From Nocardioides mesophilus (lineage in GTDB: Bacteria > Actinomycetota > Actinomycetes > Propionibacteriales > Nocardioidaceae), in assembly GCF_014395785.1 (NCBI RefSeq), contig NZ_CP060713.1:2756501-2820500 (forward strand): DNA of 64,000 bases, read 5' to 3'. Below, one piece after another: positions 13,429-54,273 of the stretch. Position numbers and translations under genes: made by a program. The notes under the pieces are model-generated. The model made no database searches. It was not told where the DNA came from and worked only from the letters and a program-made list of their open reading frames with translations. Position 1 is the stretch's first letter, and the number at the start of each line of letters is the position of its first letter.

Positions 13429-13504
<76 letters not shown>

Positions 13505-17293: not shown

Positions 17294-17311
17294 GGTTCGA
17301 GTCCCCTCAGC
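17294..17311. repeat. copy of the tRNA-Ala 3' end (att-like)
   Basis: An 18-nt segment, GGTTCGAGTCCCCTCAGC, matches the T-arm/acceptor part of tRNA-Ala (13480-13497) at 17 of 18 positions. No other part of a tRNA is present. It overlaps the stop codon of the following minus-strand protease gene. A duplicated tRNA 3' end is the classical footprint of site-specific integration, but no integrase gene lies between the two copies. Confidence 0.6.
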
Positions 17312-19688
17312 CCACGTCGAAGGCGTCGATGTCGAGGCTGCTGGAGGTCAGCCCGTGGGCGGTTCCGTCGAAGTAGACCGACCAGGTGCCCGCACCGGAG
17401 CCGACCACGTCCTCGTCCTGCACGGTGCCTAGTCCCGGGATCGTCACGTCGGTGGCGAAGGAGGCGTAGAAGTGCGTCGCGTCCACCCGGACGAACCCGT
17501 CCACGTTAGCGGCGCTCGGCAGCTTCGCGACCGAGGCGTCCCAGACCCGGGCGAAGGTGCTCCCGTCCCAGGAGTAGATGTCCGCGTCGTCGGCCGTCCC
17601 GCCCACCCCGGGGACCTTCACCGAGCCGACCGTCGAGAAGGACAACGTGCCGCCGTCGACCGAGATCGCGTCCAGGTCCTGCCCGCTCGAGGTCAGGCCC
17701 CGAGCCGTCCCGTCGAAGTACACCGACCAGGTGCCCGCGCTGAAGCTGAGCACGTCCTCGTCCTGCACCGTGCCGAGCCCCGGGACCGTCACGTCGCCGG
17801 AGAAGGAGACGAAGAAGTGGGTCGGGTCGACCAGGTCGAGCCCGTCCACGTTCGCTGCGCCGGGCAGCTTCGCGAGCGAGGCGTCGAAGGTGCGGGCGTA
17901 CGACGAGCCGTCCCAGCGGTAGAGGTCCGCGTCGTCGGCGGTCCCACCCGCCCCGGGCGGGTTCGCGTTGCCCAGGGTCGAGAACGTGAGCCCCGGCGGC
18001 GGTGGTGGCGGCGGCGGCGCGGTCACCTGGAGGGTGCCGTCGGCGGTGCGGGTGAGCCCGCCGCCGGTGGCGGTCACGGTGAACCCGTAGGTCCCCGCGG
18101 TGGCTGCTGCGGTCGGGACGAGGGTGAGGGTGCTGGTGCCGCTGCCCCCGGTGAGCAGGCGGGGGGTCAGGGTCACGGTGGCCACCGAGGTGGCCGGTCC
18201 GGTGACGCTCAGGTCGACGTCGGCGGTGAAGCCGTTGGCGCCGGTGGTCTGCACCTGCCAGGAGGCGGTGGCGCCGGGGTCGGCCGATCCGGTGACCGTG
18301 GTGAGCGTGAGGCCGAGGTCCGCCGCCGGCGTTGGCGGCGGGGGAGGCGGCGCCAGCCCGGCGGCGTAGGCCGCGGCGGCGTCCAGCATGCCGTGACCGT
18401 AGACCTCGTCCACGCCGGCGACGCCGCGGTCGGCCGCGGTCCCGGTGATCAGCGCCTGCTGCTGGTCCGCGGAGAGGGCCGGCGACTCCGCCAGCAGCAG
18501 GGCGAGGACCCCGGCCGCGTGGGGCGCGGCGACCGAGGTCCCGGACAGGTACTGGTACAGGCCGTAGCGGTCGGCGGTCAGCACGTTGCCTCCCGGCGCG
18601 ACCAGGTCGGGGAAGGCACGAGTCCGGCCGCCGCAGGTGGACGGGCCGCGGCTGCTCGACGACATCACGAGACCGGTGGCGGAGACCGCCCCGACCGAGA
18701 GCGACTCGGGGTAGTTGGCCGGGCTGACGCTGCTCGAGGTGGTCGAGCCGAAGTTGCCCGCCGGGAAGACCGGTAGGATGCCGGCGCTGCGCAACGCCTG
18801 GACGTCGGGTTGGAAGGTCAGGTCGCAGCCGGGGCCGGTCCCCAGCGACCAGGAGGCGTCCACCACGCGCGGTGCGTCCGCGGTGTTCGGGTCGGCGTCG
18901 GGGTCCAGCAGCCACTGGAAGGCGCGGTGGACGGCGCTGACCGTGGACCTCCCGGCGTCGTCGAAGACCCGCGCCGCTATCCAGGTCGCTCCGGGGGCGG
19001 TCCCGATCGCGGTCCCGCTGGTGCTGCCGCCGACCATGACCCCGGTGACCCCGGTGCCGTGGCCCATCAGGTCGGTCGGGGTCGTGGGGTGCTGGGCGTA
19101 GGGGTCGAACCAGCTGTTCGTGCCGCCACGCCAGGAGCCGGCGAGGTCGGGGTGGGTGACGTCGACGCCGCTGTCGAGGGTGGCCACCACGATCCCCGCG
19201 CCCGTGTCGCCGGAGGACCAGACCTCGGGGGAGCGGATGCTGACCTGGTTGGCCGAGGCAGTCTCGGCGGGAGTCAGCGTGACCGCGTCCGGCACGACGG
19301 AGGCGACCTCCGGTCGGGCGGCGACCTGGGCGACGACGTCGGCGGTGGCGGTCAGCACGAGGCTGTTGGAGATCCACAGGCGGTCGCGGACCTCGGCCTC
19401 CCCTCGGGCGGTGGCGGCGGACAGGGACCGGATCAGCGGGGCCTGGTCGCGGTCGGCGGTCTGCCGGAGCCTCTCCACCACCGCGCGCAGTCGATTCTTG
19501 CGCGGGCCGCTGACGGTGCTGAGGTCCGCACCGTGGGCGAGGGTGACCACCACGGTGCTGGTGACCGGCGAGCGGCCCGGCGCACGGGCCGGTGCCGCCG
19601 ACGCCGAGCCGACGGTGGCCAGGGCGGCGGGGCAGACGACCGCCAGGGCGACGGCCGCCCCGGCGAGCCGGCGGATGCACATCCTCAT
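17307..19688 (-). CDS. S8 subtilisin-like secreted serine protease with Ig-like and two C-terminal repeat modules
   Basis: A 793-residue exported protease. After the signal peptide (about 1-32) comes an inhibitor-like propeptide, then the S8 domain with catalytic Asp172 (ATLDSGVDVTHPDL), His210 (GHGTGVTG), oxyanion Asn312 (PAGNFG) and Ser385 (SGTSVAAPHAAG), so it should be active. A Pro-rich linker, an Ig-like domain of about 100 residues, a second Pro linker and two copies of the repeat module shared with two other proteins of this operon follow. The module has GTADDADIY, NVDG, VDATHFY, TVQDEDV and GTWSVYFDGT. It is the last gene of the copper-oxidase train. Its ATG overlaps the CopC-CopD stop (ATGA) and follows a GAGGAGAG site. 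It may mature or turn over the neighbouring surface proteins (inference). Confidence 0.9.
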   Translation of the reverse strand: MRMCIRRLAGAAVALAVVCPAALATVGSASAAPARAPGRSPVTSTVVVTLAHGADLSTVSGPRKNRLRAVVERLRQTADRDQAPLIRSLSAATARGEAEVRDRLWISNSLVLTATADVVAQVAARPEVASVVPDAVTLTPAETASANQVSIRSPEVWSSGDTGAGIVVATLDSGVDVTHPDLAGSWRGGTNSWFDPYAQHPTTPTDLMGHGTGVTGVMVGGSTSGTAIGTAPGATWIAARVFDDAGRSTVSAVHRAFQWLLDPDADPNTADAPRVVDASWSLGTGPGCDLTFQPDVQALRSAGILPVFPAGNFGSTTSSSVSPANYPESLSVGAVSATGLVMSSSSRGPSTCGGRTRAFPDLVAPGGNVLTADRYGLYQYLSGTSVAAPHAAGVLALLLAESPALSADQQQALITGTAADRGVAGVDEVYGHGMLDAAAAYAAGLAPPPPPPTPAADLGLTLTTVTGSADPGATASWQVQTTGANGFTADVDLSVTGPATSVATVTLTPRLLTGGSGTSTLTLVPTAAATAGTYGFTVTATGGGLTRTADGTLQVTAPPPPPPPPGLTFSTLGNANPPGAGGTADDADLYRWDGSSYARTFDASLAKLPGAANVDGLDLVDPTHFFVSFSGDVTVPGLGTVQDEDVLSFSAGTWSVYFDGTARGLTSSGQDLDAISVDGGTLSFSTVGSVKVPGVGGTADDADIYSWDGSTFARVWDASVAKLPSAANVDGFVRVDATHFYASFATDVTIPGLGTVQDEDVVGSGAGTWSVYFDGTAHGLTSSSLDIDAFDVG
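17310..17990 (-). repeat. two tandem ~110-residue repeat modules, S8 protease C-terminus
   Basis: Two consecutive copies of the shared module make up the protease C-terminus. Each begins with an L-x-FST-x-G strand, has GTADDADIY or GTADDADLY, then WDGSS/WDGST, NVDG, a PTHFF/ATHFY strand, GLGTVQDEDV, GTWSVYFDGT and ends DLDAIS or DIDAFD. The ending DAIS marks the first and DAFD the second copy of a pair. Confidence 0.85.
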
Positions 19689-21574
19689 AGCAGGCTCTCC
19701 TCTCGCGGTGCCGGTTCGGGCAGCGTGACGGGCGTACGGTCGAGTGCCGCGGCGGCTGCAGCGGCTGCGGTGGGTCGGCTCCTCCGGCGCAGCACGAGCA
19801 AGGTCAGGGCCAGCAGCGCGAGCAGCAGCGCGGCCAACGCCGAGCTGACCACCTCGAAGGGTCCGCCGTGGGCGGCTGCCCGCGGCTCCACGGTCCACGA
19901 GCTCGAGGTGACGGTGTCGGAGGCGTTGGTGCGGTGCATGTGCACGGTGGCGGTCCAGGTGCCCGCTCCGGGCTCCGCCACGGTCCCCTCGTAGCGGTCC
20001 GGACCGGTCAGGGCCAGCGGGACCAGCACGTGACCGGTCGGCCCGCTGAGGTCGACGTCGACCGCGGTCACCGGAGCGGGGTCGGGCCGGACGATGGCGC
20101 GGAGCCTCACGATGAGCCGGCCGGTGCCCGGACCGCCGGGCACCTCCTCGAAGGTGACGAAGAGCCCGTCCGCGCGCTCGACGTGCACCGTCGTCGGGCG
20201 ACGGGCGTCCAGGTCCTCCCGGGAGGTCGCGGTCGAGGTGACCACGGCGGCCAGCGCCACGGCCAGGCCGAGCAGCGCGGCCTCCGCGGTCACCGTCCAG
20301 GCGAAGCGTCGGGGGGAACCGAGACCGAGGCGTCGCACGGCGGCGTACGGCAGGCGACCGCCCACCCGGGCGGCGAGACCCGGGTGGACGACCGCGGTGT
20401 TGATCCCGGCGAGTCCGAACGCCACCACCATCAGCACCGTCTTGGCGGCGATGCCGGCGCCGTACACGGTCGTGGTGACCGCGCCGAGGTCGGGCAGGTG
20501 GTGACCGGCTTCGACCAGGCCGGTGGCCAGCAGGACCACCGTGGAGACCGCCGCCAGCGGGCTGTACGCGCGCCAGACCGGGCCGAGCAGACGACCGCGC
20601 TCGCCCGGGGCGTGGCGCAGCGCCGGGACCAGGCACCAGGCGAGGACGCCCAGCCCGCCTGCCCACACTCCGGCCGCCCACAGGTGGGCCACGGCGGCGA
20701 CGCCCACCAGGGTGGCGCCGCTCGCCAGGGTCGCGGCGTGCCCGGCCCACGCCTCGCACCCGGCCACGACGGTCAGTGCGAGCAGTGCCACGACGGCCGA
20801 CCGCCGCGGTCGGGAGAGCCTCCTGCGCCAGACGACCACGGCCACCACGGCCACGGTCAGCGCGACCTGCCGGGCCAGCCAGAAGCGGCCCGCCGGAGTC
20901 TCGGTCAGGACCAGCCAGGTCTGGTTCCACCACAGGCCAAGCCCCAGCGTCGCGTCGAAGGTGCGCACCAGAGACGTGAGCACCCCGGCGTACCACGCGG
21001 CGAGCACCGCGAGCAGGGCGATCGTGCGAGCCCGGCGGCGCACCCGGTCGCCGAGCGTACGGAGGACCCGGTCGCCCACGGTCAGTGCGCCGATGGCGGC
21101 CAGCAGGGCGGTCAGGTCCACCCACCTCACGAGGACGAGCGCAGTGGGGGGGATCTGCGGGCCGCGTGAGGTGGGTGGAGCAGGGCGGAGACCAGCACCG
21201 AAGAGCAGGGTCCCGCTGGTGGTGTGGCCGTCGTCGAGGGAGAAGACCCGCCAGTCGAGCTGGTAGGTGTTGCGCTCGAGGGGGGCGGTCTCGATCTCGA
21301 TGACGGTGGTGGCCCCTTGACCCGACACGGTGGTCGGCACGAGGGAGCCGTCCTGGGTGCGGAGCACGAAGGAGCTGGAGGCAGCGGCGACGGACTCGCC
21401 GAACCACAGGGTCAGCGTGGTGCGTCCCACCGGGACGACGGCCCCGTCGAGCGGGTCGGAGCGTTGCAGCTCGCTGTGCGCCTGGGCGGCGGAGGGCACC
21501 AGAAGGGCCAGCAGGAGCGCGACCAGGAGCACCGCTGCCCCCCGCAGCGCCCCCTTGCCGCGCCCGTGGGTCAT
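19685..21574 (-). CDS. CopC-CopD fusion, copper resistance/transport membrane protein
   Basis: A 629-residue fusion. A signal peptide is followed by a CopC domain whose mature N-terminus reads AHSELQRSDPLDGAVV, giving the N-terminal His copper ligand, with a second candidate ligand in SLDDGHTTSGTLLFG. A CopD-type membrane domain of about eight helices follows, then an extracytoplasmic domain of about 130 residues (containing TATVHMHRTNASD) and a last membrane helix near residue 590. CopC binds copper outside the membrane and CopD moves it inward. In this operon it plausibly supplies or recovers copper for the oxidases encoded upstream. Overlaps by ATGA with both neighbours show coupled translation. 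Confidence 0.9.
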   Translation of the reverse strand: MTHGRGKGALRGAAVLLVALLLALLVPSAAQAHSELQRSDPLDGAVVPVGRTTLTLWFGESVAAASSSFVLRTQDGSLVPTTVSGQGATTVIEIETAPLERNTYQLDWRVFSLDDGHTTSGTLLFGAGLRPAPPTSRGPQIPPTALVLVRWVDLTALLAAIGALTVGDRVLRTLGDRVRRRARTIALLAVLAAWYAGVLTSLVRTFDATLGLGLWWNQTWLVLTETPAGRFWLARQVALTVAVVAVVVWRRRLSRPRRSAVVALLALTVVAGCEAWAGHAATLASGATLVGVAAVAHLWAAGVWAGGLGVLAWCLVPALRHAPGERGRLLGPVWRAYSPLAAVSTVVLLATGLVEAGHHLPDLGAVTTTVYGAGIAAKTVLMVVAFGLAGINTAVVHPGLAARVGGRLPYAAVRRLGLGSPRRFAWTVTAEAALLGLAVALAAVVTSTATSREDLDARRPTTVHVERADGLFVTFEEVPGGPGTGRLIVRLRAIVRPDPAPVTAVDVDLSGPTGHVLVPLALTGPDRYEGTVAEPGAGTWTATVHMHRTNASDTVTSSSWTVEPRAAAHGGPFEVVSSALAALLLALLALTLLVLRRRSRPTAAAAAAAALDRTPVTLPEPAPREESLL

Positions 21575-22086
21575 CCCTGCATCTCCAGGTGCTCCAGGCG
21601 TGCGTCTCCGATGATCAGGGTGACCTCGTCGCCCTTGTGCAGCGCGGTCTCGGCGTTGGCCATGAGGAAGAAGTACGTGCCGCCCAGCTGCAGCTCGGTG
21701 CCGTGGTGGTGGGGCGGCGTCGACATGACCAGGGTCCGTCCGGTCTCCTCCGACACCAGCGCGGGGGACAGGTCCGGGTCGTGGACCAGTGGTGCGGCCT
21801 TGTCCGGGTCGACGACCTGGTAGCGCAGCTCGACGAGCCCGCCGGCGGCGGTGATCGCCAGGAGGTCGATGTCGATGCCGTAGCGCGCCGCCATCCCGTC
21901 GGCGGTCACCAGCGTGGTGCCGTTGCGGACGTCGGAGGCGCGGTGCACCCGCCAGGCCTGGATGCCGCAGCCGACCGCGACCAGGCTCAGCACGGCGGCC
22001 AGGACGACCAGCCGGCGCCGGATGCGTCGGCCGGCCTTGGCGGGAGGTGGTGCGGGGGCCTCGGGGGCCAGGGTGTCAGTGGTCAT
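21571..22086 (-). CDS. membrane-anchored His-rich hypothetical protein
   Basis: A 171-residue protein I cannot assign to a named family. A Pro/Ala-rich cytoplasmic tail and a basic patch (AGRRIRRR) precede one membrane segment (about 27-46, ending VGCGIQA; the Cys is in a weak lipobox). The rest is an extracytoplasmic domain with alternating strands, a HHH motif (TPPHHHGTELQLGG) and further His near the end. The His cluster and position between a multicopper-oxidase gene and CopC-CopD suggest a copper-binding or assembly role, by inference. The ATG follows a GAGGAAG site 68 nt after the oxidase stop; its own stop overlaps the copC-copD start. Confidence 0.75.
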   Translation of the reverse strand: MTTDTLAPEAPAPPPAKAGRRIRRRLVVLAAVLSLVAVGCGIQAWRVHRASDVRNGTTLVTADGMAARYGIDIDLLAITAAGGLVELRYQVVDPDKAAPLVHDPDLSPALVSEETGRTLVMSTPPHHHGTELQLGGTYFFLMANAETALHKGDEVTLIIGDARLEHLEMQG

Positions 22087-22154
22087 GGTTGCTTCCTCGT
22101 CAGAGTCCGGACCGGACCGGGCCGTGAGCCGGCCCGGTCCCGTCCGGGGATGGT

Positions 22155-24951
22155 TCAGGGCAGGTCGAACGCGTCGATGTCGCTGTTGTTGTCCGTCAAG
22201 CCCTTGCCGGTGCCGTCGAAGTAGACCGACCAGGTGCCGGCGTTGTAGGCGACCACGTCCTCGTCCTGCACGTTCCCCAGTCCGGCCAGCGTGCCGGTGG
22301 TGGTCGGGCTGAACGAGAGGTAGAAGTGCGTGGCGTCGATGAACACGAGCCCGTCGACGTCGGAGTTGGGCATGCTGTACGGCGCCTGCGAGGCGTCGAC
22401 CACCCGCGTGGAGCTCCCGGTGACACCCGTTCCGTCGAACCGGTAGATGTCGTTGGCGGCTCCTCCCGCCCCGGTCACGCCGGTCGGGCGCGTCGTACCG
22501 TTCACCGAGTAGTAGAGCTTGCCACCGGCCACGCTGATCGCGTCGACGTCGACGCTTCCGCCGAGCCCGTTGGTGGACCCGTCGAAGACCATCGTGTAGG
22601 TGCCGGTCGCGGGGTTGAACGACACGACGTCCTCGTCCTGGACCGTGAGGCCGCCACCCAGGTTGGTGGAGGTGTTGCTGAAGGAGAGGTAGACGTGGGT
22701 GGCATCCACGACTGCGTAGCCGTCCACGTTGGCCGGCCCCGAGAACACCGTGCCGACCATCGACGAGCCGTTCCACCGGTAGACGTTGTTGGCGTTCCGT
22801 CCGGAGGCGTCGTTGCCCAGCGTGGAGAAGGAGAGCGGCGCGGTCACCGTGACGGTGGCGTTGACGGTCGCACTCCAGTTGCCGGCCGCGTCCTTGACCC
22901 GGACCTTGACCGTGGTGCTGCCCTCGGGGAGCACCGAGGTGTCGAGCGTGCCCGTCACCGTCCACGGGCCCGACCCGCTGACCGTCATCGCCGTGCCCTT
23001 GCCGGCACCGGGGTCGGCGCCGCGGAAGAACTCACCGGCGACGACGGAGGTGCCGTCGGTGCCGGTGGCGGTGATGGTCGCCGTCCGGGCGCCCTGGGTG
23101 GGCGACGGGACGGCCGCCGCGTTGCTCACCGTGGGGTTGACCTTGTCGACGACCAGGGTGGTGGTCGACAGGGCTCCCCAGTTGCCGGCCGCGTCCTTGG
23201 CCCGCACCGAGATGGTGTGGTTGCCGTTGCTCAGGGCGCGGACGGTGGCCAGCGGGATGTCCGCGTACCCACCCTCGACCGGGTCGCTGAAGGAGCCGTC
23301 GACGGCCCGCAGCGGAACGCCGGTGCCGGCGGCGCCGACGTTGTCGATGAACATCTCCGCACCCGCGATCGGGCTCTGGACGAAGTTGGACTCCGGGTCG
23401 CTGAGCTGCGTGGCGTTGAGACGGATCGAGCTGGTGCCGTTGCTGTACGGCACGTTGCCGTTGCTCGGGTTGGGGCTCACCGCCAGGGCGTCGCCGTCGG
23501 TGACCACGGGACCGGTGGTGTCGACCGCCAGGGTCGCGGTGACCGCCGCGCCCCAGTTGCCCTCGGCATCCTGGGTGTGGATGTACACCGAGTGGCCGCC
23601 TTCGGCGAGGGCGTTGACCTCGGTCTGCCCGAGGGTGCCGTCCACGGCGGCCACCGGAGCGGCCTGGGAAACGGTCATCGCCACGCCCGCGCCGTCGGCG
23701 CCCAGCGTGTCGACGAAGTACTCGCCCGCGACGATGTTCGTGTTCCCCGAGGCGGAGTCGTCGCCGGTGGCGCTGACGTGGACCGCACCGCCGTCGTGCC
23801 TGACCAGCTGCGGGGTCAGCATCGGCCCCGAGGTGGTCGGACCACCGGCGTCGGCGCCGGTGACCAGCACCGAGCTGAGCGGTCCCCAGTTCCCGGCTGC
23901 GTCCTGGGCGCGGACGTAGAGCACGTGCTGTCCGTCCGGGACGTTGTACGCCGCGGTCGCGTCCTCGGTGGGGGAGGCTCCGGCGACCATCGGGAGGCCG
24001 GTGCCACCGACGTCGTCGAGGTAGTACTCGACCGCCGCGATGCCGCTCCCGCCGCGCTCGCTGTCGTCCACGTGGGCCGACAGGGTCCCGCCGAGGAAGG
24101 CGACCTGGCTGGTCACCGGTCCGGTGCTGTCACCGGTGACCCCCGAGCCCGGCACGTCGACCGTGGTGAGCATGCCGCCCACGCGGGCCGCGGTGCGGTT
24201 GGTCAGTCCCAGGCTCGCCTCGTAGACGCTCAGGCTGGTGTCCTGGGCTGCGGCAGCCGGAACCTTGACCAGGGCGTCGGCGGACTCGCCGGGGCCCGAA
24301 CGTCTGCGCGACGTAGGTGCGGGGGAAGTCCAGCTTGTTGCCATCCGTCCCGACCACCGTCTGCGAGGCTCCGAGGACCCCCATCGAGTGGTAGTTGACG
24401 CCGGCGTTCACGTAGCGCAGGAGGACGGTGTGCCCACCAGCACTCGGGATCGCGGTGGTGTCGGGGTAGGCCTTGCCGTTGATCAGGGAGTAGCGCGGGA
24501 CGTACCTGCGCATGTCGAACGTCGCCGGGGAGGCCTTGGTGTTCAGCGCCGGGTCGATCTCGCTGAGCACGAGGACCGCCTCGTCGTCGTACGCCGAGCC
24601 GGCGTCGTAGGCCTGGCCGGGCGCGGGCCGGACCACGAGCGCTCCGTGCAGGCCCATCGCGGTCTGGTACTGCGTGCCCGTGCCGGCGGTGTCGGCCGGG
24701 CCGGACTTCAGGACCGGTCCAGCCTCGTAGAGGAAGGTGCCGGGGTGCGAGGCGGTGAAGGTGTACGTCCGGGTGCCGGTGCTCGCGTCGGCCCCGGTGC
24801 GGTCCAGGGGCAGCTGCTGCCCCTGGAAGAACAGCGCGGTCTTGACGCCGAGCGTGTTGTGCAGCGTCACGGTCACCGTGTCGCCCTGGTCCACCTCGAT
24901 CGTCGGGCCACCGGGGGCGGTGACGTTGCCGCCGTTTGGTTCTCCCGCCCT
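22155..24951 (-). pseudogene. multicopper-oxidase-like protein 3 with Ig-like repeats and two C-terminal modules (frameshift, no start codon)
   Basis: The N-terminal ~220 residues are two cupredoxin domains closely similar to oxidase 2 (TVTVTLHNTLG, GTFLYEAG, LVLSEIDPALNTK, YSLINGKAYPDT) but lacking the HxH copper motifs. Reading must drop one base at the run around 24289-24297 to pass from VAQTFGP into ESADALVKVPAA. About four Ig-like/OmpL47-type repeats follow, each with a YxxD and QDAAGNWG or KDAAGNWG motif, then two of the shared modules. No plausible start or signal peptide exists: the frame opens directly after the in-frame TGA that ends oxidase 2, and the first GTG is at 24894. Corrected length is about 930 residues. 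It may be the C-terminal part of a fusion with oxidase 2, read through or broken. Confidence 0.75.
22158..22834 (-). repeat. two tandem ~110-residue repeat modules, oxidase-3 C-terminus
   Basis: Copies three and four of the shared module: FSTLGND with NNVYRWNGSS, NVDGYAVVDATHVYLSF, TVQDEDVVSF, DVDAISV, then a second copy with NDIYRFDGT, DVDGLVFIDATHFYLSF, NVQDEDVVAY, GTWSVYFDGT and DIDAFDLP at the very C-terminus. Confidence 0.85.
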
Positions 24952-26256
24952 TCACTTGCAGTCGTAGTGGCCGGGCGGATCGATCCGCATGTACGTGATC
25001 GGGCCGGTCATGTTGGCGCCCCACGAGGTGATCTGGAAGAGGGCGTGGTTGTGGCTGATGATGTAGTACTCACCGCACTGGTTGAGGGTGGGCGTTCCGG
25101 TCGGGAGCGTCTCCTGGCGGCCCAGGTAGGGGCTGCCGCTGTAGAAGGTCCCGATGAACGAGTTCGCCAGGTTGGGCGTCGTGACGGGCACCGGGTTGGC
25201 GGCGCTGTAGTCCTCCGCGTCGTGCCAGGAGAACCGCACGTCCCAGGTCTGGCCGGGGCCGATGTTGATGTCGAACTTCTCCATCGACAGGTCCTCGCCG
25301 GTCGGGCCGGTGAGCGGGTGCCCGTCGCGACCGATCACGAGACCGTTGTTGCCGTGCGGGTGGAACGGGTAGTCCTCGGTGCCGACGTTGAGGTAGCGCG
25401 CCAGCGACGGCTCGTTCGGCATGATCTCCGCCAGCGCCCCGTACGGCTGGGACGGGAGCCAGGAGGCACCGTTGTCGGCGATGCTGTCGGGGAAGCCGCG
25501 GCCGTTGATCAACCAGTAGCGCGGGTGGTAGTTGTCGATGTTGAAGGACTGGCCCTGCTCGACCCGCTGGTGCTGGTAGGGGTCGATCTCCGAGAGCAGC
25601 ACCATGAACTCGCGGTCCGGGGTGAAGTCGCTGTTCGCGGAGTCGTAGGCCTGGTGGGGCTGGCCGGCCGGTCGCACGATCAGCGCCCCGAACAGGCCCA
25701 TCCGCACCTGCTTCTCGGGGTTGGTGCCCGACTCGTAGAGGTAGGTGCCCGGGTTCGCGGCGGTGAAGCTGTAGGTCACGGTCCCGGTGCTCGCGGCGGC
25801 CGTGGTGCTCAGCGACGTCACCTTCCCGCTGCTGCGCACGGGAGTCGACGCGATGCCGTCGGCGAGCACGCCCTCCTGCCCGGGGAACACGATCGAGGTC
25901 GGGTCCGGCAGCGTGTTGTGCAGGATGACCGTGACCTCGTCGCCGGCCTCCACGCAGAGGACGGGGCCGGGGTGCTGGAACGCGTCGAAGCCGTGGGAGT
26001 AGCCCCACATGAACGCGGTGTTGCCGTCGGGGAGGCTGATGTAGCCCGTTCGCGTGGTCAGGTTGAAGATCGGCTTCCCGGCGACGCCACCGTCGCTGGG
26101 GGTGCACACGATGCCGACCTTGGGGACGTCGGCGGCGGACGCCGTCGTCTGCGGGGTGAGGGCCGCGGTGGTGACCCCCATGGTGGCGACCGCGAGCAGC
26201 GCGGCTGCGCGTCGGCCTCCGAGTCGTGCCTTCAGTGAGGCGGTGAGCGTGCTCAT
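24952..26256 (-). CDS. multicopper-oxidase-like protein 2 (cupredoxin pair with HPH and HNH motifs)
   Basis: A 434-residue exported protein. The signal region is GGRRAAALLAVATMG. Two cupredoxin-like domains follow. The first lacks copper ligands (SIVFPGQ and GTYLYESG stand where HWHG and YHCH would be). The second carries DYPFHPHGNN and, near the end, CGEYYIISHNHALFQITSWGANM: two HxH motifs able to bind type 2/type 3 copper, but the second reads HNH rather than HCH, so type 1 copper should be absent. It therefore looks like the half-site partner of oxidase 1. The start lies 2 nt after the oxidase 1 stop. Its TGA stop is in frame with oxidase 3. Confidence 0.88.
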   Translation of the reverse strand: MSTLTASLKARLGGRRAAALLAVATMGVTTAALTPQTTASAADVPKVGIVCTPSDGGVAGKPIFNLTTRTGYISLPDGNTAFMWGYSHGFDAFQHPGPVLCVEAGDEVTVILHNTLPDPTSIVFPGQEGVLADGIASTPVRSSGKVTSLSTTAAASTGTVTYSFTAANPGTYLYESGTNPEKQVRMGLFGALIVRPAGQPHQAYDSANSDFTPDREFMVLLSEIDPYQHQRVEQGQSFNIDNYHPRYWLINGRGFPDSIADNGASWLPSQPYGALAEIMPNEPSLARYLNVGTEDYPFHPHGNNGLVIGRDGHPLTGPTGEDLSMEKFDINIGPGQTWDVRFSWHDAEDYSAANPVPVTTPNLANSFIGTFYSGSPYLGRQETLPTGTPTLNQCGEYYIISHNHALFQITSWGANMTGPITYMRIDPPGHYDCK

Positions 26257-26258
26257 GG

Positions 26259-27614
26259 TCAGACCCCCAAGTCGTTCGGGTAGGCCTGGGCGTGGACCGT
26301 GCCGGTCGGGTAGACCCGGACCTCGGTGGCCTGTCCGCCGAACCCGCCTGGCGCCAGGTTGTTGGACCGCAGCAAGTTGCGGTTGTAGAGCATGTAGGTG
26401 TCGTACGGCGTGCCGCCGGCGTGCGCCGGGGCTGTGAAGAGCACGTCGTAGCTCTCGCCGGGGCCCATGTTGAGGGTCTCGGTCTCGTACGACGTGTCCG
26501 TCCCGTCGCGACCCCGCATCGGCGTCGCGTCCCGGCCGACCACCCGCATCGGGATCCCCGAGAGGGTCATCGCCGACTCCCGGAAGCCGAGGTTGGCGAA
26601 CCGCAGTGCCACCCGGTCGCCCGCGTTGCAGGTGACCAGGGACGAGTGCGGCTGGTACTTCAGGTCCGGTCGCCCCGCCGGGGCGATCAGGTCGCCGTCC
26701 GGCGCGACCACCTGGTGGAACGGGTCGATCGACCCGTTCGGCGCGAGGGTGTCGGGGTAGACCCGACCGTTGAGCAGCGCGAAGTCCGCGTGGTAGTCGC
26801 TCCACTCCGGCAGCTGGATGTGGGCGTCGGCCCAGTGCGCCTCGGCCCACACCTCCGAGCAGAACATCGCGAACTCCCGGTCGAACTGCGTGGAACGCTC
26901 GGGCGGTGTGCCGGCCGGGTCGTTGTAGAGGTAGTTGTCGCCCTTGAGCGGCCGGACGAAGACGAGCCCGGTCATGCCCATGTGCACGTGCTCCACGTCC
27001 TCGACGTGGCAGTGGTACATGTAGGTCCCTGGGTCCCGGGGGCGGTAGACGTAGGTCATCGACCGCCCGGCGGGCACGGACACCGACCCGCTCGGCTCGC
27101 CGTCGAAGAACGGGATCACGTTGCGGAAGCCGTGCCAGTGCAGGGTGTGGGCGTCGAACAGGTCCGGGCGCAGCTGGAGGCCGAGGTTGGTCAGCTGGAC
27201 CTTGAAGTCGACCGGCTGGGCGGGGTCGAACTGCCTGGCCCAGAACAGCGGCGCCGAGTGCTGGGCGTGGTACTTCTGGGCCTGGGCCTGGATGTCGGTG
27301 AGGCCGGTCAGGTTGCGGAACCCGAAGATGTACGTCGTCAGGCCCGGAGGAGCCAGCGGATCCGGGTGGAACGGTGCGATCGCCGGGGTGGGCGGCAGGT
27401 GGATCCAGCCGTCGGTCCCACCGAGGTAGAGGTCCGGCGCCCCGAGCGCGGCCTCGGCCGGCTCGGGGAACAGGCTCTTGCCTGCCCAGGCGACGGAGCC
27501 GAGTGCCGCGGCCCCCCCGGTCAGCCGCAGGAACCTGCGGCGGTCCAGTCGGATCTGTTCCATGCTCTTTCCCCCTGCCGTCCGGATCTGGCCGGTCGTC
27601 TCTTCGTTGGTCAT
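26259..27614 (-). CDS. multicopper-oxidase protein 1, Tat-exported, with type 1 and half of the trinuclear ligands
   Basis: A 451-residue protein with a twin-arginine signal (RLDRRRFLRLTGGAAALGS), as expected for folded copper enzymes. The first cupredoxin domain has LHWHGFRNV and YMYHCHVEDVEHVHMGM, that is HxH, HCH and the Cys, His and Met of a type 1 blue copper site, reminiscent of ceruloplasmin-like domains. The second domain (AMTLSGIPMRVVGRD) has lost the His ligands. Only two of the four HxH motifs needed for a trinuclear centre are here; the other two are in the next protein. The ATG follows AGGTGAGAG, 35 nt after the giant gene. Possible substrates are Mn(II), Fe(II), Cu(I) or phenols; none can be chosen from sequence. 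Confidence 0.9.
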   Translation of the reverse strand: MTNEETTGQIRTAGGKSMEQIRLDRRRFLRLTGGAAALGSVAWAGKSLFPEPAEAALGAPDLYLGGTDGWIHLPPTPAIAPFHPDPLAPPGLTTYIFGFRNLTGLTDIQAQAQKYHAQHSAPLFWARQFDPAQPVDFKVQLTNLGLQLRPDLFDAHTLHWHGFRNVIPFFDGEPSGSVSVPAGRSMTYVYRPRDPGTYMYHCHVEDVEHVHMGMTGLVFVRPLKGDNYLYNDPAGTPPERSTQFDREFAMFCSEVWAEAHWADAHIQLPEWSDYHADFALLNGRVYPDTLAPNGSIDPFHQVVAPDGDLIAPAGRPDLKYQPHSSLVTCNAGDRVALRFANLGFRESAMTLSGIPMRVVGRDATPMRGRDGTDTSYETETLNMGPGESYDVLFTAPAHAGGTPYDTYMLYNRNLLRSNNLAPGGFGGQATEVRVYPTGTVHAQAYPNDLGV

Positions 27615-27649
27615 TGCTCTCACCTGGTTCTTCTGGACCGAGCGGGGTC

Positions 27650-30600
27650 TCACGGGATGTCGAACGCGTCGACGTCGGCTCCGGCGGCGGTCAGCCCGTG
27701 GGCTGTGCCGTCGAAGTAGCTGGACCAGGTGCCGCCGTTGTTGAGCACGACGTCCTCGTCCTGGACCGCTCCCAGGCCGGGCAGGGTGGTGTCCGGCCGG
27801 AAGGAGAGGTAGAAGTGCGTTGCGTCGACCCGGACGTAGCCGTCCACGTTGGCCGCGCTGGGCACCCCGTTCGCCGTCGCGTCCCACACCCGGGTGAAGA
27901 CCGCGGTGTCGGCGGGGGCGGTGACGTCGACCGAGTAGATGTCGGCGTCGTCGGCAGTGCCGGTGACCCGCCGCGGGTTGGTGTTCCCTGCGGTGGAGAA
28001 GTACAGCGTGTTGCCGGAGACACTGATCGCGTCGATGTCCTGGGCAGCTGCGGTGAGGCCTCGGCTCGTGGCGTCGAACCACACCGACCAGGTCCCGTTG
28101 TCGTAGAGGATGACGTCCTCGTCCTGCACCGTCCCGAGGCCGGGCACCGACGTGTTGCCCGCGAACGAGGCGTAGAAGTGCGTCGCGTCGATCCGGTCGT
28201 AGCCGTCCAGGTTGGCACCGGCCGGGAGCCGGCTGGCCACGGGCAGGGCGGTCACGTCCAGCTCACGGGTCGTGGTGGTCCCGTCGAAGGAGTACAGGTC
28301 GGCGTCGTCGGCGGTCCCCGTGACCCCGTCCGGGTTGACGTCGCCCAGGGTGGAGAAGACCACGCGCCCCTTGCCGTCGCCGGTCGGGCCCGGCGGCGGG
28401 TCGACCGGGGGCGGGGTGACCGCCGCTCCGGGCAGCGAGAACGCGTCGATGTCCTGGTTGTTGCTGGTCAGGCCGGCGGCGGTGCCGTCGAACCAGACCG
28501 ACCAGGTGTCCGCGGCGAGCTCCACGATGTCCTCGTCCTGGACTGACCCGGCGCCGGTGAGCGTCGTGTCGACCGAGAAGGAGGCGAGGAGGTGCGTGGC
28601 GTCGGTGTAGACGAGCGAGTCGAGGTTCGCCGTGCCCGCCACCGTGACCACCCGGGCGACGGTGTTGGCGCCGGTCCAGGCGTAGACGTCGTTGACGTCA
28701 CCGCTCAGGTTGGTGCGCAACGCGGTCGTGGAGTTGACGGAGAAGTACAGGCTGCCGTTGACCACGCTGATCGCGTCGAGGTCGATGCCGGTGCTGAGGC
28801 CGCGGGCGCTGGCGTCGAAGAACATCGACCAGGTTCCGTTGTCGAACTCCGCCACGTCCTCGTCGGCCACGGCCAGGTCGGGCCCGGGCCGCGCGATCGT
28901 GATGTTGGCGTCGAAGGACACGTAGAAGTGGTTGTCGTTCACCATGCTCAGGCCGTCGATGTTGACCCCGAAGAGCGGCAGTCCCAGGTCGGCCACCTGA
29001 GCCTTGTGGCGGCTGAATGAGCCGTTGTAGCGCAGGACGTCTCCAGGAAGCGCAGGGATGGGGGCGAAGCTGAGCCCGGCCGTCGAGAAGAAGAAGTCCT
29101 TCGCCGGTGGGGGCGGGGGCGGGGTGCCCCCCTTGGTGGAGCCGAACTCGTCCGAGCCGGCGTCGATGCCGCCGAGCGCAGGGCGCACCTCGTCGTCGAT
29201 GTCGGTGGCGGGCGCGTTCACCAGGGTGGCTCCTGCACCCGTGCTGGCGACGCCCAGGTTGCAGGCCGGCGACGTGCACGTGGTCCCGGTGCCTGCGAGG
29301 TGGTAGTCACCGAGCTGGTTGGCAGGAACCTCCGCGGCCACCAGGGTGGCGTCGACGAAGGCGGGGTTCTGACGCCAGGTCGCGAAGGCCACCGAGGTGT
29401 CGTAGGTCGACACGACCCCGGGGTTCGTCGTGCTGTTGCTGGCATCCGTGGCGTACGCGTGCTGGGCGGCGTCCTGCTGGATCACCGAGCTGAGGGGGCT
29501 CAGCAAGGCGGTCCCGTCGGCCAGCCCGACGTCCCAGTGGTCCACGGCGCTGCTGTCCCCGGCCAGCCCGATACCGGTCACGGTGGTGCCGGCGCGGGTG
29601 CCGGCGCGGTTGTCCCAGAGGATGTTGTTGAACATCACCGGGTCGCTGTAGGGCTTCGCGCCGGCTGGCAGGGTGCCCTGCAGCTGGTCGCTGTTGAGCG
29701 AGGTGGAGACACCAGCGGGTGCCGGGGCACCGTTCGAGGTCACCGCCGTCGCGGTCGTGGTGTTCTTCATGATCGTGTTGTTGACCAGGCGCACGTTCGG
29801 TGCGTCGTTGATGGCCACGCCTGCGCCCTCGTGGGTCGAGACGTTGTTCACGATCGTGTTGTCGACGACGTTCATGGTCGAGGCGCCGGACATCAGGAAC
29901 CGGATGCCACCGCCGTCGTCGTTGGACAGGTTGCCCTGGATCAGGTTGTGCGTGATGTCCACCGCACCGGTGCCGGGAGACAGCACGGTCGGGTCGGCGG
30001 GGAGCGCTCCGGCGATCATGATGCCGGCGCCCTCGTCGTTGGAGTTGTTGAAGTAGATCCGGTTGTGGTGGATCTTCCCGCCGGGGCTGAGGCCGTAGAC
30101 GCTCACTCCGGCGCCGTACTCCAGGGAGAAGTTGCCGCAGATGTCGTTGCCGGAGACCTCGTAGCCGTCGCTGCCGCCGAAGAGGCCGACTGCGCCCGCC
30201 AGGTTGGTGCCGGCGTTGGAGATGATCCGGTTGTCGGCGATCCGCACGCCCTCGTTGTGCTGGTTGGCGTCGACGCCGGCAAGGTCGGGGGTGCCGATCC
30301 GGATGGTGCCGTAGCCACCGCCGTTGTTCTCCACCACGTTGTTGGTGATCTGGAGGTTCTTGACGTAGGCGTTGGCGAAGACGGCGCCGCCCTGGGTGAC
30401 GATGTTCGGCGGGAGTCCGGAAGGCTGACCGGTCAGCTCGTTGATGTTGCCCGGGAAGCCCTGCTGGTCACCGCCCCGGATGTCGAACCCGTCGATGGCG
30501 GCGTGGAAGGCGCCGCCGAACGAGCGGGCCCGGCCGGGCTGGTCGCCGTTCCCCGACGAGGCGAGGAGATAGATCGCCTCACCGTCGCTGACGGTCTGGT

Positions 30601-33600
30601 TGCCGTCCCAGGTGAGCCCGCCGACCTTGGCGTACCACGCGGTCGCCAGGTCGGTGTCCCCACCGAACGCACCGGCGTCCAGCACGGTGCCTGCCACGTA
30701 GGTGTTGCCCTGGAAGCCACCCGAGCCGACGCCCTGGAGCTTGACCGGGGAGGCCATGACGAGGTTCTCGTAGTAGGCGCCCCGCGGGTTGGCGGCGGTG
30801 GCGTTGTTCGGGTAGACCACGACCAGGTTCCCGGCCGAGCCGTTGTTGGCGTAGGCGGCGTCGAGCGCCGCCTGGATGGTGGCGTACTGGTTGGCTCCGG
30901 TCCTGCCGGGTCCGACCTCGCGGACGGTGGGGCTGTAGCCCGCACCGAGCACGTGGAAGGTCAGGCCGTTCACGGTCTCCTCACCGTTGTCGGCGGTGAC
31001 CTTGAGCGTGTGGGCTCCCGGGACCGTGCCGGCGGGGACGGTGACCTGGAGGGTGGTGCTGCTCCAGGCGGTGGTGGGCAGAGCGGTCCCGTCGAGCGTG
31101 ACCTCACCGGTGCCCTTGGCCGAACCGAATCCCGTGCCCTCGATGGTGAACGAACCGGAGCCGTCCACGTAGGGCTTGGAGACCGCGAACAGCTGCGGGA
31201 CGACCGGATCGACCGGGCAGGAGACGGCCATGCCGAGGCCGGTGGTGGGGCTGGTCAGGATCGCACCCACCTGGGTCGGGGCCAGGTCGGTGGGGATCGT
31301 CACTCCGGGCATCGCCTCGAACTCGGTGGCGATGGTGCGGTAGCGCGGGTTGTAGTTGGCGTTCAGGGCCCCGGGGACTCCCGGGTCGTTGCCCACGAAC
31401 CGGTACATCCCGGTGCACACACCCGAGGGCGTGGGGCAGCTGATGTGGTCGGTCGACGGCAGCAGGGTCTCGTAGTAGCCGTTGAAGTCGGACTCCACGG
31501 TCTGCACCAGGCGGTTGTTGAAGTCGTAGATACCGACCGGGGCGAACGGGATGCCCGGCTTCTCGCCGTACAGCGTGCTGCGCGGGTCGGTGCCGTAGTT
31601 GATGTCGTCCACGATGAGACCGAACAGGCGCGACGGGATCGGCACGTCGGTGAACAGGTTGAACATCGGCACGATGGACTTGCCGTTGTTGAGCGAGACC
31701 AGCTTGGTGTCGCACAGCGGCTTGACCTGGCCCTCGTACGGCGAGCCGCCGATGTCGACGAAGGTCGGGTTGTCGACCGGGGTCGAGGCGGGCACGGTCA
31801 CGCCGACCGGCAGATCGTTGCTGACGCCGCCGTCGCCGATCACCTGGGGATAGCCGTCCTCGACGGCTCCGCCCGCGAGCTGGGCCGCGGCAACCTCGGT
31901 GACGATCCCCGTGCCGTCGGACGCACCGGTGTCGGCGACCGAGAGGAGTCCCGATGCGCTGGCATCGGCCAGGACCGCAGACCTGACGTCGCCGGCCGTG
32001 GACGTGACCGCGCCGCTGCTGTCCGTCGCGAGGCCGACCACGACGTCGTTGCCCGTGACCGTGACGCTGAGGGGCGTGTCGGCCCCGGCGGCGACGAGCG
32101 CGACCGTGACGTCGTTGCCGGTCGGTCCGGCGGATGCGGCGGTCCAGGTCAGCGCGTTGTTGTCCGCCACGGTGCCGGTCTTCAGGGACGCCGCGGTGGG
32201 CGCTCCGCCGGCGACGTCGACGGTGTGCAGCGCACCCGCGCAGGCCGGCGGTGGGACCTGCGGGACGATCTGGTCGCCGTGCGCGATGTTGATGTCCTCC
32301 TCGCCGGTCACGTTGTACATCGGGTGGCCGGTCAGGTCGTCGGGGATGTCCACGGAGACCAGGTAGTCACCCGAACCGAGAGCGTCGAAGGGCACGGCGT
32401 TGCCGTTGGCGTCGTTGCAGGTGGGGTTGGCCGGGTCGGTGGCGTCGAGGGTGCCCTTGAAGCAGCCGTCGCCGAAGCCGTAGTTGCCGTCGACCGCTGC
32501 ACCGAAGTTGGCGTCCGGGGTGCCCTGGTCGGTGGCGTAGGGGCCGTACTGAACGCTCTGCAGGATCGCCGAGATGCACTCGCCGTCGGTCTCCTGGTTG
32601 GGCGCCAGCACGTCCTCGTCGAAGTTGGCGGGGTCGTCGGCCCGGTGGACCAGGGGCTTGCCGTCCACGTCCCGCGCGGTGCAGCCGGTGGGCCGGCTCC
32701 AGTGCTCCGAGACGTAGGTGTTGAGCAGCTTGCCCTTGGCGTAGGAGCCGTCGGACGCCAGCTCGTAGTAGCCGTCGGCGTCACAGGGCGCGTCGGCGTG
32801 CGTGCCGCAGTCGACCGGCGCGTGCAGCTCGACCGGGAGGTCGGAGATGCCGGGCTGCCAGTCCTCCGCGGCGGCGTAGCGCGGGTCGAGCTCGTTGCGG
32901 GTCGTGTCGTAGCTCAGCGAGCCGACGATGCCGCCGTTGCGCGGGTCGATGCCGTTGGTGCCGGTGGCGTCGTACGCGTGCACGCCCCAGTCCATCGTCC
33001 CGCTCAGACCGATCATGTTCAGCGTGCTGACGTCCACCCCGGCCCCTTCACGGTGGTCGGGGTCTTCTGGTTGTCGGCCTGGTAGGTCACGCCGGTGGTG
33101 TAGAAGGAGTCGTTGTAGGCCTCCATCACCGTCCACGCGGCGAGCGGGTAGGCGCCCTCGAAGGAGTAGTAGCCGGTGGCGTCGGTGGTCGCCGTGGTCG
33201 AGCCACGGTCCATCAGCGAGTTGTCCTGCTTGCGGAGCGTCAGGGTGAAGTTCGGGATGCCCTTCTCGCCGGAGTCCTTCGTGCCGTTGCGGTTGGCGTC
33301 GTTGAAGACGTAGCCGTCGAGCTTGGTCCACCAGCCCATCAGGGGGAGCTGGCCCATCTTGACCGCCTCACCGTTCCTCACGGTGACGTTGACCAGGTTG
33401 AGGATGTAGTTCTGCGGCTCGTCCCACCAGGTCAGCGAGTAGTCGCCGTCCGGAACGTTGGGGATGGTGAAGCTGCCGTCGGCGTTGCCGCGGCCGACCC
33501 ACTTGGCCCGGTCCCCGTCGTTGAGGTCGGCGAGCGAGAGCACGGGGTGGGGGATGGGCTTGTCGGTCTTGGAGCCGGTCATCCCGTTGAAGAAGTTGAT

Positions 33601-34740
33601 GTCGCCGCCCTTGGGGGGCGTGTACTGCTTCACGCCGACCACGACGCCGCTGATCGAGCCCGAGCCGCTGCCGAGAGCGTTCTTGGGCTTGACGAAGCCG
33701 AACTGCGGGGTGGGCACCGGCTCGCCGGCCAGCGTGAACTCGGTGTCGTAGCCGGTGGCGCCCTCCATCATCCAGGTGTCGAAGTCGTGGTTGCCCTCGA
33801 GCGTGGTGGTCTGGATCCAGTCCTGACCGTCCGGCGGCTGGGCGGTGGTGGTGTAGCGGTTCGAGCCGAGGTGCGGGATGGTCAGCATGCCGGTGCTGTC
33901 GCTGAAGCACTTGCCGCCGACGGTCTTGACGACCGGCGCGCCGTCGGCGTCCAGGGAGCCGGCGGGGATGACGTGGGTGTCGGGGTCCTCGCCCTCGTAG
34001 ACCGTGCAGAGCGGGTTGCCGTAGACGTCGGTGGTGACCTCGCCGAGGGTGTCGTTGATGTGCCCCTGGAAGCCGGCGAGACCGTCCTCGCTGTTGTCGA
34101 TGGCGCTGTTGGTGGTCGCCTCGTCCTGGAAGACGAAGGCCCGGAGGGTGGCGTCGGGCAGCGGGTCCGGCTGGACCTCGACGACGACCGGGTCGGTGGT
34201 CGTGAACGGCACTGTGAAGTGCGCGCCGTCCAGCTTGTAGCCGTCGGCCAGCACCGAGATGAGGTACTTGCCGTCGGGCAGGTCGAGACCGTCGGCCAGG
34301 TCGGCCTCCGTGCCCTGGGCGATGATCGGGGCGGTGGTGTGCGGCAGCTCCCGGATCGAGGGCCACTTGCAGTCGGCCGGGTAGCCGGGGGTCGAGGCGG
34401 AGCAGGCGCCGGACGGGGCGCGCTGCGCCGTGGAGCCGGTGTTGTCCGCGTTGATCAGGAACTTGTACGCCGTCACCGGGTCGCCCTCGCGGACACCGGT
34501 GCCGCCCAGTGCGCGCGGCTCCGTCCGGGCGCTCTGGACCTGCACGCGCAGGGTGCTGCTGGGCGCCGCGCTCGCCTGGGGCGGCGGCAGCATCACCAGC
34601 AGGGCGGCGGCGAGGGCGAGGACCACGGCACTCGCCGTCACACGCCGCTGCGTGTCCGGCGGCGCTGCGGCCGCCGTCCCCCGTCCCCCCGGGCCACCCT
34701 CGGTGGCCACCCTCGACGCATCGATCCACTGTCCGCGCAT
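27650..34740 (-). pseudogene. ~2,360-residue secreted multidomain surface protein (SdrD/Cna-B-like, IPT/TIG, beta-helix, four repeat modules), frameshifted
   Basis: First gene of the copper-oxidase train. The ATG at 34740 follows a GAGGAGTGAGG site. A signal peptide at about 34-58 is followed by about 400 residues of beta-rich carboxypeptidase-regulatory-like sequence. Then come an SdrD/Cna-B-like domain at about 470-555 (GYVFNDANRNGTKDSGEKG), a Cys-rich region with VDCGTHADAPCDADG, an IPT/TIG domain at about 1180-1265, a right-handed parallel beta-helix at about 1270-1880 (many NNxI and NxI steps) and four copies of the shared module at the end. A single base is missing in a C run at 33037-33040: KGPG should continue as VDVSTLNMIGL, but as written it terminates at TSAR. 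No LPxTG or other sorting signal is seen. Probably an extracellular scaffold or adhesin. Confidence 0.82.
27653..29097 (-). repeat. four tandem ~110-residue repeat modules, giant protein C-terminus
   Basis: Four copies as two DAIS/DAF pairs. Copy 1 is divergent (FSTAGLS, VADEDVAEF, DLDAISV); copy 2 has VNDVYAWTG, SVQDEDIVEL and DIDAFSLP; copy 3 has GTADDADLYSFDG, TVQDEDVILY, DIDAISV; copy 4 has GTADDADIYSVD, AVQDEDVVLN, DVDAFDIP as the last residues. With the protease and oxidase 3 this makes eight copies in one operon. Confidence 0.85.
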
Positions 34741-54132: not shown

Positions 54133-54211
54133 TCCCCGGTTGGTCTGCCGGCAGGGCCCGCCTGACTTTGAATCAGGACTAGCGACGTAGGTTCGACTCC
54201 TACCCGGGGAG
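54133..54211 (+). tRNA. tRNA-Gln (anticodon TTG)
   Basis: The acceptor stem TCCCCGG pairs with CCGGGGA, followed by G73; CCA is not encoded. The anticodon stem is CCTGA/TCAGG with loop CTTTGAA, giving TTG for codon CAA. The T arm is GTAGG-TTCGACT-CCTAC. The D stem is short, and the region between anticodon and T stems is 9 nt (ACTAGCGAC), longer than the usual 4-5, so the total is 79 nt. It lies immediately before glmU, as in related genomes. Confidence 0.85.
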
Positions 54212-54273
54212 CGAGGCGCCAGGCTGCGCACGACGCGAGCAGCCGACGCCGGGACCAGGACCGAGGAGAGCGT

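What the first reader, a model, noticed from the sequence alone, without database searches (positions are those of the whole stretch)
17307..34740. 17.4-kb minus-strand gene train for a candidate extracellular copper-oxidase assembly
Seven consecutive minus-strand genes: giant surface protein, oxidase 1, oxidase 2, oxidase 3, His-rich membrane protein, CopC-CopD and S8 protease. Spacings are 35 nt, 2 nt, one shared TGA, 68 nt and two ATGA overlaps, so one transcript is likely. All products are exported or membrane bound except that oxidase 3 has no visible export signal of its own. The set combines copper supply (CopC-CopD), copper enzymes, a scaffold-like protein and a protease. Multicopper oxidases of this broad type include metal oxidases (MnxG- or ceruloplasmin-like), so Mn(II) or Fe(II) oxidation is a reasonable but unproven hypothesis.
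Basis: partly seen in the sequence, partly recalled or inferred. Interest (0 to 1): 0.82.

Follow-up and report, generated by a model that had tools for sequence, protein, structure and literature searches.

The report
Copper oxidase split across genes
A gene cluster shared by very different bacteria appears to build one exported copper enzyme from three separate proteins, with its oxygen-reacting site divided between two of them, and it may oxidise iron or manganese outside the cell; the copy in this genome has two interrupted genes.

Summary
The seven-gene minus-strand train is real, but two genes are broken here: the giant gene lies in two frames, and 'oxidase 3' lacks a start and signal peptide and is frame-broken. 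Intact copies exist in relatives. The block is conserved across phyla. In 80 named loci fetched with ox1, and counting loci with room, ox2 follows in 76 of 76, giant precedes in 73 of 77 (fused behind ox3 in the other four), ox3 follows in 70 of 71, membrane protein 49 of 51, protease 40 of 51. There are not three oxidases: the type-1 ligands and half the trinuclear site lie in ox1 (78 of 78), the other half in ox2 (74 of 74), and ox3 has none conserved. I infer one heterotrimeric oxidase on a scaffold, derived from two-domain oxidases. AlphaFold2 packs the three chains together (pTM 0.85). The proteobacterial form matches the described Slit_1812-1818 cluster of an iron oxidiser, more abundant on magnetite (PMC12016527, passages), and some relatives carry a MofC-like cytochrome. 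Fe or Mn oxidation is plausible, untested.

The parts
33019..34740 (-). giant surface protein, N-terminal part (signal-like N-terminus, SpaA/SdrD_B domains); frame ends at 33019
   Evidence: ORF and Pfam
27650..33046 (-). giant surface protein, remainder in a second frame (TIG, beta-helix, C-terminal tag domains)
   Evidence: ORF, Pfam, codon-usage path; one frame in relatives
26259..27614 (-). ox1: two cupredoxin domains, twin-arginine-like signal, type-1 copper ligands and half of the trinuclear site
27132..27149 (-). ox1 motif H156..H159-x-H161
   Evidence: ligands 78 of 78; coordinates computed from the ORF
26973..27014 (-). ox1 motif H201-C202-H203...E205xxE208-H209...M214
   Evidence: ligands 78 of 78, axial Met 76 or Leu 2
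24952..26256 (-). ox2: two cupredoxin domains, other half of the trinuclear site, no type-1 Cys
25354..25362 (-). ox2 motif H299-x-H301
   Evidence: 74 of 74
25045..25053 (-). ox2 motif H402-x-H404
   Evidence: 74 of 74
24298..24951 (-). ox3 cupredoxin part; no start codon or signal; frame breaks near 24280-24300
22155..24297 (-). ox3 remainder in a second frame (end of cupredoxin 2, Ig-like repeats, C-terminal tag)
21571..22086 (-). small conserved membrane-anchored protein
   Evidence: alignment and presence in 49 of 51 loci with room
19685..21574 (-). CopC-CopD copper import protein
   Evidence: Pfam/NCBIfam
17307..19688 (-). S8 subtilase
   Evidence: Pfam E 1.2e-47; present in 40 of 51 loci with room
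17310..18002 (-). C-terminal tag domain of the protease
22161..22835 (-). C-terminal tag domain of ox3
27656..28363 (-). last tag domain of the giant
28436..29095 (-). second tag domain of the giant

Best explanation
The cluster encodes one exported heteromeric multicopper oxidase, not three oxidases. Ox1 supplies the type-1 copper (electron entry) and half of the trinuclear copper site; ox2 supplies the other half; ox3 is a copper-free third subunit that closes a ring of six cupredoxin domains (interfaces ox2.D2|ox1.D1, ox1.D2|ox3.D1, ox3.D2|ox2.D1). Ox3's Ig-like extension links the enzyme to the giant adhesin-like scaffold; in some bacteria ox3 and scaffold are one polypeptide. A copper module (CopC-CopD here, SCO1 or NosL elsewhere) supplies copper, the small membrane protein anchors or helps assembly, and the protease processes the exported parts. 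Electrons enter at ox1 and reduce O2 at the ox1-ox2 interface. The likeliest donor is a metal ion or mineral, Fe(II) or Mn(II). Shown: gene conservation, ligand distribution, co-folding in models, natural ox3-scaffold fusion. Inferred: ring order, roles of the accessory proteins, substrate. In this genome the scaffold and ox3 genes are interrupted, so this copy is either decaying or mis-sequenced.
For: Ligands split over ox1 (78 of 78) and ox2 (74 of 74), none conserved in ox3 of 69 loci. Adjacent conservation of ox1-ox2-ox3 with giant. Three-chain model pTM 0.85, two-chain model pTM 0.79. Three-domain laccases superpose at 2.6-3.0 A over 375-382 residues on model residues 440/443-1143, which fits the ring that the ligands require. 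Best PDB relatives of ox1 and ox2 are two-domain oxidases. Ox3-giant fusions. Copper and cytochrome partners. Slit_1812-1818 architecture and magnetite response (PMC12016527 passages; PMC5566968 section 13). Invariant ExxE in ox1.
Against: No coordinates or PAE were available, so copper geometry was not measured; the models used intergenic stretches as linkers, and the two-chain model gave no direct view of the interface. Foldseek TM to six-domain oxidases is only about 0.2. The substrate rests on context alone; many host MAGs have no known metal chemistry. The protease is absent from 11 of 51 loci with room and the shared C-terminal tag is not universal. Two genes are broken in the window.
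Confidence: 0.6

Rival explanations
1. Same split oxidase, but its donor is copper(I) or organic (copper tolerance or laccase-like chemistry), not Fe or Mn.
For: CopC-CopD, SCO1 or NosL neighbours; closest folds are laccases and nitrite reductases; no substrate test exists.
Against: The giant scaffold, MofC-like cytochromes in some relatives and the magnetite response of the look-alike cluster (PMC12016527, passages) point to a mineral or metal donor.
Confidence: 0.22
2. Ox1, ox2 and ox3 are three separate enzymes.
For: Each has Cu-oxidase Pfam hits and its own signal peptide in relatives.
Against: No single product has a full ligand set: ox1 has one half of the trinuclear site, ox2 the other and no type-1 Cys, ox3 none.
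Confidence: 0.05
3. The two frame breaks are programmed frameshifts, so the window genes are functional as they stand.
For: Both breaks lie in G/C-rich stretches and the coding signal continues at once in the new frame.
Against: Near relatives are in one frame at these places, and ox3 has also lost about 200 nt with its start and signal.
Confidence: 0.04
4. The assembly is mainly a surface matrix or adhesin; the oxidase part serves cross-linking or is a structural relic.
For: Giant, Ig-like and tag domains dominate by length; ox3 has no copper ligands.
Against: The eleven Cys/His ligands of ox1 and ox2 are invariant over very divergent loci, which a relic would not keep.
Confidence: 0.09

Closest known systems
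Slit_1812-1818 cupredoxin cluster of Sideroxydans lithotrophicus ES-1 (PMC5566968 section 13; PMC12016527 passages)
   Same: Three tandem extracellular cupredoxin proteins, two with oxidase motifs and a larger motif-free third with adhesin/polysaccharide-lyase-like domains, plus SCO1 and a cytochrome; the same layout as the fused ox3-giant form in L062, L070, L115 and L116.
   Different: Sequences could not be compared here. The window form keeps ox3 and giant apart and adds CopC-CopD and the S8 protease. The papers give no split-site model and name only some Proteobacteria and Anaeromyxobacter as further holders.
Two-domain multicopper oxidases 3g5w (Nitrosomonas) and 2zwn (metagenome laccase)
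   Same: Best PDB profile hits of ox1 and ox2, best VIA matches (Z 28-30).
   Different: I recall these as homotrimers with all sites in one gene (type C); here the sites are divided over two genes and a third paralogue has none.
Six-domain oxidases: ceruloplasmin, MnxG (9bxa)
   Same: Six cupredoxin domains and one trinuclear site; among the best Foldseek E-values.
   Different: Those are single chains. PMC3600357 (introduction and passages) puts the MnxG-type trinuclear site between domains 2 and 3 with type-1 copper in domain 2; here type-1 lies in the first domain of ox1.
OmpB/MofA systems
   Same: Extracellular oxidase with MofC-like cytochrome and SCO1 partners, as in some proteobacterial relatives here.
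   Different: OmpB and MofA are single large oxidases; [quoted passage not shown] Not compared by sequence here.

Membership tests
Multicopper oxidase | Type-1 ligands (2 His, Cys, usually Met) and four HxH pairs of a trinuclear site | tested here: met
   Met only by ox1 and ox2 together: 78 of 78 and 74 of 74; three more ox1 rows show the motifs by eye
Two-domain oxidase of type C | Two cupredoxin domains per chain with type-1 copper in the first | tested here: met
   Ox1 ligand positions 156-214 of 451; Z 28-30 to 2zwn and 3g5w. The type-C label is recalled
Two-domain oxidase of type C | One gene makes a complete homotrimeric enzyme | tested here: not met
   No single gene carries all ligands
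Six-domain oxidase (MnxG, ceruloplasmin) | Six cupredoxin domains in one chain | tested here: not met
   Three genes of two domains each
Mnx complex | MnxE and MnxF partner proteins | not tested
   No comparison of the small membrane protein with MnxE/MnxF was made
OmpB/MofA system | MofC-like protein (cytochrome c plus periplasmic-binding domain) nearby | tested here: inconclusive
   Both domains in L050 and L117, cytochrome part only in L037, no Pfam hit in L081 at 1e-5; related ORFs in 7 of 81 loci; none seen in the window train
OmpB/MofA system | Sequence relation to MofA or OmpB | not testable with these tools
   Those sequences were not at hand
Slit_1816-1818 type cluster | Two motif-bearing cupredoxin proteins followed by a larger motif-free one with adhesin domains | tested here: met
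   By layout in L062, L070, L115, L116; in the window the third protein and scaffold are separate
Slit_1816-1818 type cluster | Sequence homology to Slit_1816-1818 | not testable with these tools

The most novel reading that the evidence does not exclude
A 'ceruloplasmin in pieces': three diverged paralogues of a homotrimeric two-domain oxidase have become an obligate heterotrimer with a single catalytic site at the ox1-ox2 interface, mounted on a shared scaffold (in some lineages through a common C-terminal domain), and spread by horizontal transfer across phyla as a mineral, Fe or Mn oxidase. It would be a living intermediate between homotrimeric oxidases and single-chain six-domain oxidases, reached by its own route.
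Probability: 0.45. Interest if true: 0.85.

Novelty: new variant of a known kind. Interest (0 to 1): 0.68.

Why it matters
It explains why such clusters carry three 'oxidases': one active site is divided over two genes and the third is structural. It links clusters in Actinomycetota, Chloroflexota, Nitrospirota, Myxococcota, Thermodesulfobacteriota and Pseudomonadota to an unexplained iron-oxidiser cluster, and gives a testable candidate for extracellular metal oxidation in culturable bacteria such as Cryobacterium, Intrasporangium and Humibacillus. It also bears on how multi-domain copper oxidases evolved.

Tried and rejected
Programmed frameshift: rejected, since near relatives are in frame at the same places. 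His-rich copper site in the membrane protein: rejected, not conserved. A universal shared C-terminal tag: rejected. Giant-ox3, ox3-S8 and giant-S8 ends are alike within a locus in 17 of 56, 15 of 41 and 8 of 39 pairs (window included), against 385 of 4519, 351 of 2460 and 159 of 3036 between loci: enriched, not universal. CxxCH motifs in the giants of relatives: none printed by the scan. Sand filter plus oxidase literature: nothing held.

Rows dropped: the first read-through alignment (88 rows) misplaced 25 single-gene rows, all 20 ox3 rows and 5 ox1 rows; I left these out, and also the L035 ox2-ox3 row (20% identity in ox3), before modelling with 63 rows. Of 81 loci, the ox1 ligand count leaves out L025 and L082 (a wrong ORF was picked) and L046 (cut by the contig end); all three show the motifs. 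The ox2 count leaves out L012, L014, L025, L029, L045, L046 and L082, which are fragmentary, cut, mis-picked or lacking; L025 and L082 show both motifs. Conservation counts rest on loci fetched with ox1, so ox1 is there by construction, and the fetch kept the best 80 of 147 relatives. The ox2 profile used for genome surveys had 34 of 75 rows held.

Results that did not help: VIA for the ox1-ox2 model shows no three-domain laccase among its 50 rows, so that model gave no direct view of the interface. Foldseek superpositions with six-domain oxidases are poor in TM. In the same-family genome no protease was found within the 19-kb stretch, nor in one of two stretches of G356. Ten paper searches gave no paper on a split or heteromeric oxidase of this kind (open-licence PMC only); PMC9040806 and PMC10732223 were seen as passages.
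Full report
What is there. The window lies in a complete 4.49-Mb single-contig genome. Two genes are not intact. The giant gene changes frame near 33030-33046. The third cupredoxin gene has no start codon or signal peptide, follows the ox2 stop in the same frame, and changes frame again near 24280-24300. Near relatives read these places in one frame, and nine of them have 197-221 nt more between ox2 and the conserved part of ox3, which in those printed codes a start and signal peptide. A genome of the same family also has giant and ox3 whole (L098). Whether the window's breaks are mutations or sequence errors cannot be told here. A few other loci also show split genes (L012, L016, L023, L066, L081).

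Conservation. A search with ox1 in named genomes kept the best 80 of 147 loci, from Actinomycetota, Chloroflexota, Pseudomonadota, Myxococcota, Nitrospirota, Acidobacteriota, Thermodesulfobacteriota and Dormiibacterota (labels). Among loci with enough flanking DNA, ox2 follows ox1 in 76 of 76; giant precedes in 73 of 77, the other four having giant fused behind ox3; ox3 or the fusion follows in 70 of 71; of 51 loci with 9 kb downstream, the membrane protein is found in 49 and the protease in 40. The cluster is rare: 2 of 149 genomes of the window's family and 3 of 396 of its phylum, own genome included in each. In the ox2 tree the window sits with Intrasporangiaceae, while the other member of its family branches far away, on a long branch whose place is unsure. 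Horizontal transfer is therefore likely.

One active site over two genes. Numbered on the window proteins, ox1 has H156, H159, H161, H201, C202, H203 and H209 in 78 of 78 rows, with Met (76) or Leu (2) at 214; ox2 has H299, H301, H402 and H404 in 74 of 74, and no Cys at the type-1 place between the last two (0 of 74). That is a type-1 site plus one half of a trinuclear site in ox1, and the other half in ox2. Ox3, a closer relative of ox2, has no conserved ligand set in 69 loci. Profile searches of solved structures put the two-domain oxidases 3g5w and 2zwn first for ox1 and for ox2, and Thermus laccase first for ox3. I recall 3g5w and 2zwn as type C, with type-1 copper in domain 1. The simplest reading is that a homotrimer became a heterotrimer by complementary loss of sites. 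Vasin et al. (PMC3600357, introduction and passages) describe a parallel history for single-chain six-domain oxidases.

Models. In some loci the three genes share a frame and are parted by single stops. Reading those stops as glycine gave one chain per locus. The L022 chain, with 63 aligned rows, gave pLDDT 83.3 and pTM 0.85; the stretches under 50 are the two linkers and two loops. The Intrasporangium ox1-ox2 chain gave pLDDT 83.7 and pTM 0.79. VIA aligned three-domain laccases to residues 440/443-1143 at 2.6-3.0 A over 375-382 residues. The range begins with ox2 domain 1 and ends with ox3 domain 2, so these two sit like laccase domains 1 and 3. By pseudo-threefold symmetry this is the ring in which ox2 domain 2 faces ox1 domain 1, which is what the ligands demand. 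This is inference: no coordinates were available, and a range gives only its two ends.

Scaffold and tag. In the window, ox3, giant and protease end in the same domain of about 230 aa, which got no Pfam name and was found nowhere else in the genome at E 0.001. Over 81 loci its profile hit only giant, ox3 and protease ORFs, in 26 loci. In L067 and L084 (Nitrospirota) all three products share other end domains not hit by this profile. A common anchoring or assembly signal is a fair guess in these lineages; it is not universal.

Context. Copper modules differ by lineage: CopC-CopD relatives in 13 of 81 loci, SCO1 verified in L034, NosL in L051 and L056. ORFs of a one-haem cytochrome family lie in 7 of 81 loci; cytochrome c plus periplasmic-binding domains were verified in L050 and L117, cytochrome alone in L037, and L081 gave no Pfam hit at 1e-5. 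He et al. [quoted passage not shown] A 2025 paper (PMC12016527, passages) names that region Slit_1812-1818: two cupredoxin proteins have oxidase motifs, the third is larger, motif-free and adhesin/polysaccharide-lyase-like; the proteins were higher in late magnetite than in Fe(II)-citrate cultures; their role is unknown; similar clusters are noted in Paraburkholderia, Ralstonia, Anaeromyxobacter and Steroidobacteraceae. The layout equals the fused form found here, but sequences could not be compared. ORFs with six or more haem motifs lie in 8 of 81 loci. Ox1 has an invariant E-x-x-E (E205, E208; 78 of 78) in the loop that carries the type-1 ligands; He et al. name EXXE as an Fe(III)-binding motif of OmpB. 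This favours a metal or mineral donor; no test has been made.

Verdict. The train is a real, cross-phylum gene set that most likely makes one split multicopper oxidase on a scaffold. The window copy is interrupted in two genes. Three separate oxidases are not supported; Fe or Mn oxidation is plausible but unproven.

Noticed in passing
   Followed up: partly
L012, L016, L023, L066, L081: Cluster genes are split into several frames in these loci too, so decay or sequence error is not unique to the window.
   Followed up: no
L027, L059, L063, L068, L075, L076, L078, L079: ORFs with 6 to 30 haem-binding motifs lie within the fetched stretch near the cluster, a hint of extracellular electron transfer.
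   Followed up: partly
L074, C-termini of giant and ox3: The two ends are 96% identical over 190 residues, as after a recent copy or conversion.
   Followed up: no
window 27480-27614 and ox1 of relatives: Ox1 has a twin-arginine-like N-terminus (motif in 45 of 77 loci), while ox2 (5 of 74) and ox3 (2 of 61) mostly do not, so subunits of one enzyme may use two export routes.
   Followed up: partly
Chloroflexota loci such as L020, L022, L029, L039: LuxR-type response regulators (family in 19 of 81 loci) and histidine kinases (15 of 81) recur near the cluster.
   Followed up: partly
G000:C1:2501400 and 2599131: Two further Cu-oxidase_3 genes elsewhere in the window's genome, unrelated in place to the cluster.
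   Followed up: no
window 13429-13504 and 54133-54212: tRNA-Ala (cgc) and tRNA-Gln (ttg) genes outside the train.
   Followed up: no
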